A stretch of 64,000 nt of DNA from Spiroplasma melliferum (GTDB lineage Bacteria; Bacillota_I; Bacilli_A; Mycoplasmatales; Mycoplasmataceae), in NCBI GenBank assembly GCA_005222125.1, contig CP029202.1:620001-684000 (forward strand), given 5' to 3'. A model generated the notes under the pieces. The model saw only the letters and a list, made by a program, of their open reading frames with translations. It was not told the origin of the DNA and did no database searches. A program made the translations under genes and the position numbers. Below are positions 21,820 to 23,536 of this stretch, one piece after another (within the stretch, counting starts at the first letter, position 1; each line of letters begins with the position of its first letter).

Positions 21820-21834
21820 AAAAAAAAAAAAAAA
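21820..21834. repeat. Poly-A run of 15
   Basis: Homopolymer in the 21507-21917 gap, which otherwise holds the operator above and a minus-strand terminator at 21873-21898 (AAACCTTCTT/AAGAAGGTTT). No gene seen in that gap. Confidence 0.6.
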
Positions 21835-21917: not shown

Positions 21918-22226
21918 TTATTTTTGTAATTGTTGATCATAATATTTTTTTGTTTTATTAATATTGTTTTTGCCAACAAAAACAAAGTTATGTTTTGATT
22001 TAACACAATCTGGATTGATACAATGCAATTTATACTCACAAGGTTTTGAGCGACAGAAAAACACCGGTTGTTCACACATTTGGCATGATAAAATTGATTT
22101 TTGTGATTCTTGCATTGCAGCACATTTTTTACATTCTTCAGCATGTTGTTCGCAGCCAATGAAGACACTATCTGGCATTGCTAATCTTTTTTTTGTTTCA
22201 GTTGAATTGTTATTTTCGAAAGCCAT
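21918..22226 (-). CDS. Cys-rich putative zinc-binding protein, 102 aa
   Basis: The sequence has ten Cys arranged mostly in CxxC-like pairs (CKKC, CQMC, CINPDC) with His residues between, which suggests two or more zinc sites. It lacks membrane segments. AAAGGAG lies upstream of ATG 22226 and a terminator follows the stop, so it is a monocistronic gene. No family recognised; ribbon-type fold is inferred from Cys spacing only. Confidence 0.75.
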   Translation of the reverse strand: MAFENNNSTETKKRLAMPDSVFIGCEQHAEECKKCAAMQESQKSILSCQMCEQPVFFCRSKPCEYKLHCINPDCVKSKHNFVFVGKNNINKTKKYYDQQLQK

Positions 22227-22550: not shown

Positions 22551-22577
22551 TTGAAAAAAAAAAAAAAAAAATACAAT
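22551..22577 (+). promoter_or_regulatory. Promoter with 18-A spacer tract, candidate phase-variable switch
   Basis: TTGAAA (22551-22556) and TACAAT (22572-22577) are separated by 15 nt, all A. The full A run is 18 (22554-22571). The lipoprotein gene starts 45 nt downst. Length change in this tract would alter -35/-10 spacing. Confidence 0.6.
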
Positions 22578-22622
22578 AAAATTATCGATAACTTTAATCG
22601 AATAGAAAGGAACATATAAAAA

Positions 22623-22940
22623 ATGAAAAAAAATTTAACAATTCTAGGAGCAATTAGTTTTTCTACAGTTGGAGCAAGTAATGTTATTGCTTGTAATTCA
22701 ATACATGAAAATGAAATTAAAAGTCTTCAAAATCGACTATCAACTTTAAAAGGAAAAATTAATAACTTAAAAAATGTTAGCGAAGAGCAAAAAGAACAAC
22801 TAAAGTTTGCATTAATAGAACTTGAAAATGGGTTAAAAGGATTAACTTCAGATGAAATTAAATCAATGCCAAGAACAGAGATTGATTTATTAAAGTCAGC
22901 AATATCTTTCTTAGAAGAGCAAATTAATAAATTAAGTTAA
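22623..22940 (+). CDS. Small lipoprotein with coiled coil, 105 aa
   Basis: The signal peptide ends in VIAC (acylated Cys24). The mature part is about 80 residues, highly charged and helical (NEIKSLQNRLSTLKGKINNL), a likely coiled coil, with no Trp. AAAGGAAC lies upstream of the ATG. It is flanked by a poly-A promoter and a strong 18-bp terminator, so it is a single-gene unit. Surface exposed; function unknown. The promoter suggests on/off expression. Confidence 0.85.
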   Translation: MKKNLTILGAISFSTVGASNVIACNSIHENEIKSLQNRLSTLKGKINNLKNVSEEQKEQLKFALIELENGLKGLTSDEIKSMPRTEIDLLKSAISFLEEQINKLS

Positions 22941-22966: not shown

Positions 22967-23008
22967 AATGTTTCTTTTAACTGGTAATATCCAGTTAAAA
23001 GAAACATT
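22967..23008. terminator. Bidirectional 18-bp hairpin terminator
   Basis: AATGTTTCTTTTAACTGG (22967-22984) is the exact reverse complement of 22991-23008, with a 6-nt loop. It lies between convergent genes. Confidence 0.85.
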
Positions 23009-23029: not shown

Positions 23030-23536
23030 TTATTTTTGAAAAGTATCTAAAAACTGGTAAACTTCCTCATAATTTGGTTCGGAAGAAATTGGTGAAACAA
23101 TTTGTAAATAAATAATTTTATTATCTTGATCTAAAATCATTACGCTTCGTGCTAATAAATTATTAAATGGAAAATATAATTTTGTTTGTGTGCCAAATTC
23201 ACGATAATTAGTATCAGATAATAAAATATGGTTTGCATTAACAAAACCTTCACATGCTCGCTTCAAAGCAAATGGCAAATCACGTGAAATTGTTATTAAT
23301 TGAACATTAGGATACTTGCTAATAATTGTTTCATTAAATTGTTTTGTTTGTGTTAAACAAACACTAGTATCTATACTAGGTACTGCGGAAATAACTTTAT
23401 ATTCTTTTGTTATGGTTTCTAATTCAAAATCTTGTCAATCAACCATATCAGCTTTAAATGATACCTTGTGACCAACTTGAAGATGATCTTTTGCAAGCAA
23501 ATTTTTAACATCGCCACTCATTGTTCCTACTGCCAT
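23030..23536 (-). CDS. tpx: Thiol peroxidase
   Basis: The 168-aa product is a 2-Cys atypical peroxiredoxin that reduces hydroperoxides. It has VPSIDTSVCLTQTKQFNE with peroxidatic Cys60, and a second Cys95 in LKRACEGF, matching the usual resolving Cys. Length is normal. GGGAGGAAAC lies upstream of ATG 23536. It stands alone between a terminator and tlyA. One of the few antioxidant enzymes visible here. Confidence 0.93.

What the first reader, a model, noticed from the sequence alone, without database searches (positions are those of the whole stretch)
22551..22622. Lipoprotein promoter with an 18-A spacer: likely phase-variable expression switch
The -35/-10 spacer is entirely A (15 nt between TTGAAA and TACAAT, 18 A in total). 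In Mycoplasma hyorhinis, changes in a poly-A tract next to the -10 box switch vlp surface lipoproteins on and off. The gene downstream is also a small surface lipoprotein.
Basis: partly seen in the sequence, partly recalled or inferred. Interest (0 to 1): 0.65.

Follow-up and report, generated by a model that had tools for sequence, protein, structure and literature searches.

The report
Poly-A promoter before Spiroplasma lipoprotein gene
A run of 18 A's sits exactly between two promoter-like boxes in front of a small surface-protein gene of a Spiroplasma bacterium; it looks like known mycoplasma on/off switches, but close relatives have only 7 or 8 A's there, so it may be a recent accident rather than an evolved switch.

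Summary
In detail: TTG + A18 + TACAAT at 22551-22577, before a 105-aa lipoprotein gene (22623-22940). Read as TTGAAA/TACAAT, the spacer is 15 A, two short of the usual 17.

Against it: at the same site three sister species have A8, A7 and A7, so TTG and TACAAT are not at promoter spacing there; two of the three have a broken gene, and the third is intact with A7 and no TTG. The genome holds 34 A-runs of 15 or more, mostly not at promoters.

Verdict: a plausible single-gene vlp-like promoter, made recently by A-tract expansion. Slippage is likely; an evolved on/off switch is possible but unshown. No within-species length data could be obtained.

The parts
22551..22556 (+). -35-like hexamer TTGAAA (its last three letters are part of the A-run)
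   Evidence: TTG kept in 3 of 4 species
22554..22571 (+). A18 run; 22557-22571 is the all-A spacer of 15
   Evidence: A8, A7, A7 in G002, G004, G006
22572..22577 (+). -10-like hexamer TACAAT
   Evidence: identical in 4 of 4 species
22577..22582 (+). overlapping alternative -10-like hexamer TAAAAT, 20 nt from TTGAAA
22604..22611 (+). ribosome binding site AGAAAGGA
   Evidence: sequence
22623..22940 (+). lipoprotein gene, 105 aa, lipobox VIAC
22967..23008 (.). terminator-like hairpin, both directions, between the convergent genes
21921..22226 (-). divergent neighbour, 102-aa cysteine-rich protein, syntenic in the sister species
23030..23536 (-). convergent neighbour, redoxin-family protein

Best explanation
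The A18 run is a slippage-prone homopolymer that expanded recently in this species, from about 8 A, inside an older promoter-like region. The expansion placed a TTG upstream of a conserved TACAAT at near-promoter distance and so made a vlp-like spacer. Because the spacer is only A, each gain or loss of an A by polymerase slippage (no MutS in this genome) moves the two boxes relative to each other, so transcription of the lipoprotein gene should drift or flip with tract length. At A18 the spacing (15 nt to TACAAT, 20 nt to the overlapping TAAAAT) is off the 17-nt optimum, so the sequenced clone probably expresses weakly from it. Shown here: anatomy, recency by comparison of species, absence of MutS, tract-length variation at comparable sites elsewhere. 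Inferred: promoter use, within-species slippage, effect on expression. Not claimed: selection for switching.
For: Anatomy. Site alignment A18 / A8 / A7 / A7 with TACAAT kept in 4 of 4. No MutS_V domain in the own genome, found in 11 of 14 control genomes. Second long tract of the window (21820, A15) is A7 in G002, so expansion is a habit of this lineage. Long tracts differ from the G002 copy by 2 A in one orthologous pair and 0 in another. Same architecture before paralogous lipoproteins in G285 with tracts A14-A21 and in G057 with A13 and A14 followed by GTACAAT. TTGAC-polyA sites precede surface-type genes in 19 of 29 sites against 6 of 30 control sites, 13 of 16 against 6 of 29 genomes.
Against: No transcript start or within-species length data. 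The site ranks third among candidates in an ad hoc scoring of its own upstream region and is not listed by the consensus scan. It lacks the TRTG element and the TAWAAT consensus reported for S. melliferum promoters (PMC5138195 passages). TTGAA-polyA (7 of 26) and A12-TANAAT (11 of 29) are not clearly enriched before surface genes.
Confidence: 0.45

Rival explanations
1. An evolved phase-variation switch: the tract is kept long by selection because reversible on/off expression of this lipoprotein pays off in the host, as for vlp.
For: Spacer-tract anatomy and surface lipoprotein; the only tract of its kind in the genome lies at a surface gene; order-wide link of TTGAC-polyA with surface genes; dN/dS 0.35 against S. 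phoeniceum suggests that the protein is kept.
Against: Tract short in 3 of 3 sister species and gene broken in 2 of 3. No paralogs with the same promoter. Long A-runs are common in this genome without promoters.
Confidence: 0.2
2. A neutral A-run in an intergenic region; the real promoter uses other boxes, so tract length does not matter.
For: S. phoeniceum keeps an intact gene with A7 and without TTG. Other candidate boxes score as well or better. Consensus matches are expected by chance in this AT-rich region. The vpma T-tract next to a -10 box does not vary expression (PMC2268961).
Against: TACAAT is conserved in 4 of 4 species directly after the A-run, and this is the only one of the genome's 34 long tracts that ends in a -10-like box.
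Confidence: 0.3
3. The length of 18 is a sequencing or assembly error.
For: Homopolymers are a known weak point of several sequencing methods (general knowledge); no reads were available.
Against: Runs of 15 or more occur in 14 of 14 genus genomes, and two orthologous tract pairs agree within 2 A between the own genome and G002. An error of 10 A is unlikely; an error of 1-2 is not.
Confidence: 0.05

Closest known systems
vlp promoters of Mycoplasma hyorhinis (Citti and Wise 1995, seen only through passages of PMC10502178 and PMC2268961)
   Same: poly-A tract between -35 and -10 of a surface lipoprotein promoter
   Different: vlp is a multi-gene family with shown on/off switching; here one gene, no shown variation, spacing off the optimum, tract recent
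maa2 of Mycoplasma arthritidis and vmm of Mycoplasma mycoides (passages of PMC2268961, PMC10502178)
   Same: insertions or deletions in the -35/-10 spacer switch a surface protein
   Different: vmm uses dinucleotide units; switching was shown in those, not here
vpma T-tract of Mycoplasma agalactiae (PMC2268961)
   Same: homopolymer directly upstream of the -10 box of a lipoprotein promoter
   Different: the paper reports that this tract does not generate variation: a warning that anatomy alone does not prove a switch
   Same: -35-like TTG joined to poly-A before lipoprotein genes; in G057 also TACAAT
   Different: TTGAC rather than TTGAA; several paralogs with different tract lengths in one genome

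Membership tests
vlp-type spacer-tract phase-variable promoter | homopolymer fills the spacer between -35 and -10 | tested here: met
   TTGAAA + 15 A + TACAAT, as sequence; that the boxes act as promoter is not shown
vlp-type spacer-tract phase-variable promoter | downstream gene codes for a surface lipoprotein | tested here: met
   NF038029 above cut-off
vlp-type spacer-tract phase-variable promoter | tract length varies within a population or species | not testable with these tools
   one genome per species, no reads; between species A18 / A8 / A7 / A7
vlp-type spacer-tract phase-variable promoter | tract length sets transcription | not testable with these tools
vlp-type spacer-tract phase-variable promoter | spacing near 17 nt at one of the lengths present | tested here: inconclusive
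   15 nt at the one length sequenced; not listed by the 16-18 nt scan
vlp gene family (multi-gene system) | several paralogous lipoprotein genes each with the same tract promoter | tested here: not met
   single A12-TANAAT site in the genome; full-length paralogs not found, weak matches cover mostly the signal peptide or coiled stretch

The most novel reading that the evidence does not exclude
Spacer poly-A promoters are an order-wide, repeatedly arising way for Mycoplasmatales without mismatch repair to make surface genes noisy or switchable, and this Spiroplasma locus is caught at birth: the tract has just expanded from about 8 to 18 A and turned a fixed promoter into a length-dependent one.
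Probability: 0.2. Interest if true: 0.7.

Novelty: new member of a known kind. Interest (0 to 1): 0.38.

Why it matters
Phase variation by spacer homopolymers is known from animal mycoplasmas. Three literature searches that paired Spiroplasma with phase variation or slippage listed no paper whose title or shown abstract start reports it there. If real, it would extend the mechanism to a helical, arthropod-associated mollicute and show how such switches can arise from a genus-wide habit of growing long A-runs. The survey also gives stronger candidates, above all the G285 array.

Tried and rejected
Terminator reading of the tract: rejected, because the left neighbour is divergent and the right neighbour convergent with its own hairpin at 22967-23008. 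Genome-wide sharing of the promoter by other lipoprotein genes: not found. A second TTGAC-A18 site in the own genome (C3:457879-457896, minus strand) has no ORF of 60 aa or more within 300 nt, so it does not support the idea; it stays in the counts as a miss. The one scan of genome contigs gave only S. phoeniceum. Pfam and NCBIfam gave no function beyond 'lipoprotein'.

The surface-gene test rests on simple rules (longest ORF starting within 200 nt; hydrophobic stretch or lipobox near its start). Rows left out: 9 of 39 TTGAC sites had no locus, and one of the 30 loci was dropped for flanks identical to another; 15 of 45 control sites had no locus; 29 of 32 TANAAT sites were used; 26 TTGAA sites came from the 30 loci that one search gave, a part of all its matches. 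In one search identical-flank sites were not dropped and one G057 site was counted twice, which does not change the by-genome count. The first version of the test (300 nt, hydrophobicity alone) gave 17 of 29 against 6 of 30, p 0.003; the second version was made after seeing the first. A -10-like box at 14-19 nt was found in 11 of 29 TTGAC sites against 5 of 30 controls (p 0.08, not significant).

Full report
Check of the observation. The sequence at 22551-22577 is TTG, 18 A, TACAAT; with TTGAAA as -35 and TACAAT as -10 the spacer is 15 A. An ORF of 105 aa starts at 22623 behind AGAAAGGA. Its first 24 residues match NCBIfam LP_plasma above the curated cut-off, so it is a lipoprotein; Pfam shows nothing above cut-off. 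The left neighbour is divergent and the right neighbour, a redoxin-family protein, is convergent, with a strong terminator-like hairpin between. The tract is therefore not the T-run of a terminator.

Is it more than chance? By a Markov model an A18 run is very unlikely (0.0025 expected on the + strand). But this genome does not follow such a model: it holds 47 A-runs (both strands) of 10 or more, of which 34 are 15 or more. The same two-peaked pattern is found in some relatives, for instance 38 of 40, 44 of 45 and 66 of 69 in G003, G009 and G010, but less so in others, for instance 12 of 39 in G004 and 3 of 25 in G007. In the window there is no A- or T-run of 9-14, but there are A15 and A18. 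A long A-run is thus ordinary here. Its position is not: it is the only A12 followed by TANAAT in the genome, and 1 of 46 RBS-led ORFs of 80 aa or more in the window has an A-run longer than 8 within 120 nt upstream. Of 32 own tracts of 15 or more that I examined (of 34), 20 have no ORF of 60 aa or more starting within 200 nt on the strand of the A-run; several of the others are weak ORFs. Many of these tracts lie beside short hairpins on the T strand and look like terminators (my reading of the flanks; not counted).

What organism. The window is C3:620001-684000 of a 1.41-Mb genome; TGA falls inside many of its reading frames, and Spiroplasma phoeniceum P40 has the orthologous locus. From memory, the chromosome lengths of G002 and G004 fit S. 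citri and S. kunkelii, and the own genome would then probably be S. melliferum; that is recall and elimination, not a tool result.

The same site in relatives. The conserved neighbours allow an exact comparison. TACAAT is kept in 4 of 4 species; TTG in 3 of 4 (absent in S. phoeniceum); the tract is A18 here, A8 in G002, A7 in G004, A7 in G006. In the three relatives TTG and TACAAT are 7-8 nt apart or TTG is missing, so this -35/-10 pair exists only here. The gene is frameshifted in G002 (one base missing), has lost its middle in G004, and is intact in S. phoeniceum. The other 10 genus genomes have no match to the protein at E 1e-6. Own against S. phoeniceum gives dN/dS 0.35 (15 synonymous, 24 nonsynonymous changes); own against G002 gives 0.76 on only 8 changes. 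The simplest history is a recent expansion from about 8 to 18 A in this lineage. The other long run of the window (21820-21834, A15) is A7 in G002, so expansion happened at a non-promoter place too.

Does the promoter work? Mapped promoters of Mollicutes including S. melliferum have -10 TAWAAT, a TRTG element and, in S. melliferum, a pronounced -35 TTGACA (passages of PMC5138195). Our site has TTGAAA and TACAAT, no TRTG, and a 15-nt spacer. The standard scan does not list it. In an ad hoc scoring of the native sequence it ranks third in its own upstream region, and an overlapping TAAAAT lies 20 nt from the same TTGAAA. So the sequenced length is not optimal for either box. This fits a weak or 'off' state, and equally well no promoter at all.

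Survey across the order. A12+TANAAT occurs 32 times in 26 of 320 genomes, the reversed pattern 16 times. TTGAC followed by A13 or more occurs 39 times in 16 of 320 genomes, the reversed pattern 13 times. Of 29 TTGAC sites analysed, 24 have an ORF of 60 aa or more starting within 200 nt, and in 19 it looks like a lipoprotein, membrane or secreted protein; for a scrambled control (RTWAC-A13) the numbers are 14 and 6 of 30 (p 0.0006). By genome it is 13 of 16 against 6 of 29 (p 0.0001). The sets closer to our own site give no clear signal: TTGAA-A12, 7 of 26 (p 0.75); A12-TANAAT, 11 of 29 (p 0.16). These tests rest on simple ORF and hydrophobicity rules and on related genomes.

Two loci show what a stronger case looks like. 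In G285, 12 sites of TTGAC-polyA were found; 11 lie between 739758 and 783311 on one strand. All 12 lie before a lipoprotein-like start, most with near-identical flanks, and tract lengths are 16, 15, 21, 17, 15, 14, 21, 15, 16, 19, 16, 15. In G057 two adjacent paralogous lipoproteins lie behind TTGAC-A14-GTACAAT and TTGAC-A13-GTACAAT, with the same -10 letters as our site. These support the idea that such tracts slip in Mycoplasmatales.

Mechanism. No MutS_V domain is found in the own genome, while the same search rings in 11 of 14 control genomes, so slipped-strand errors are probably not corrected. Comparable tracts elsewhere in the genome differ by 2 and 0 A from the G002 copy in two clear orthologous pairs (A19/A17 and A16/A16). 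I infer that the A18 slips and that each step moves the boxes. Whether RNA polymerase uses these boxes, and whether cells differ, is not shown. Known spacer-tract switches are vlp, maa2 and vmm (passages of PMC2268961 and PMC10502178); the vpma T-tract next to a -10 box is a reported counter-example.

Literature. I saw the outline and passages of PMC5138195, and passages of PMC4198240, PMC10502178, PMC2268961, PMC11868660 and PMC2831843; nothing of Citti and Wise 1995 itself. Searches pairing Spiroplasma with phase variation, homopolymer or slipped-strand mispairing, and with antigenic variation, listed no paper whose title or shown abstract start reports such a switch in Spiroplasma; the library is open-access only.

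Verdict.

Noticed in passing
G285:C1:739758-783311 (L228, L231, L233, L255-L262), plus L218 at 377933: Array of lipoprotein genes about 2-9 kb apart, each behind TTGAC-polyA; 12 sites in the genome with tracts of 14-21 A and mostly near-identical flanks.
   Followed up: partly
G057:C11:188079-189307 (L159, L160): Two adjacent paralogous lipoprotein genes behind TTGAC-A13-GTACAAT and TTGAC-A14-GTACAAT.
   Followed up: partly
whole genus (14 genomes): Two-peaked A-run lengths: in several genomes nearly all A-runs of 10 or more are 15 or more (38 of 40 in G003, 44 of 45 in G009, 66 of 69 in G010), so long tracts do not thin out with length.
   Followed up: partly
window 21820-21834: A second long run, A15, downstream of the divergent 102-aa gene; A7 at the same place in G002, while G010 and G009 have T19 and T17 near the corresponding place.
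   Followed up: partly
L127-L136 (genomes G034-G045, genus g25): Repeated motif TTGAA-A15-17 followed by T(A/G)(C/T)TTGGTC... and TATAAT about 25-30 nt on, with no ORF found within 200-300 nt in most; the A-run may lie upstream of a -35 box there.
   Followed up: no
G000:C1 (L009-L014): 57.6-kb contig with near-identical segments about 23.3 kb apart, similar to Spiroplasma plasmids; possibly a duplicated plasmid assembly.
   Followed up: no
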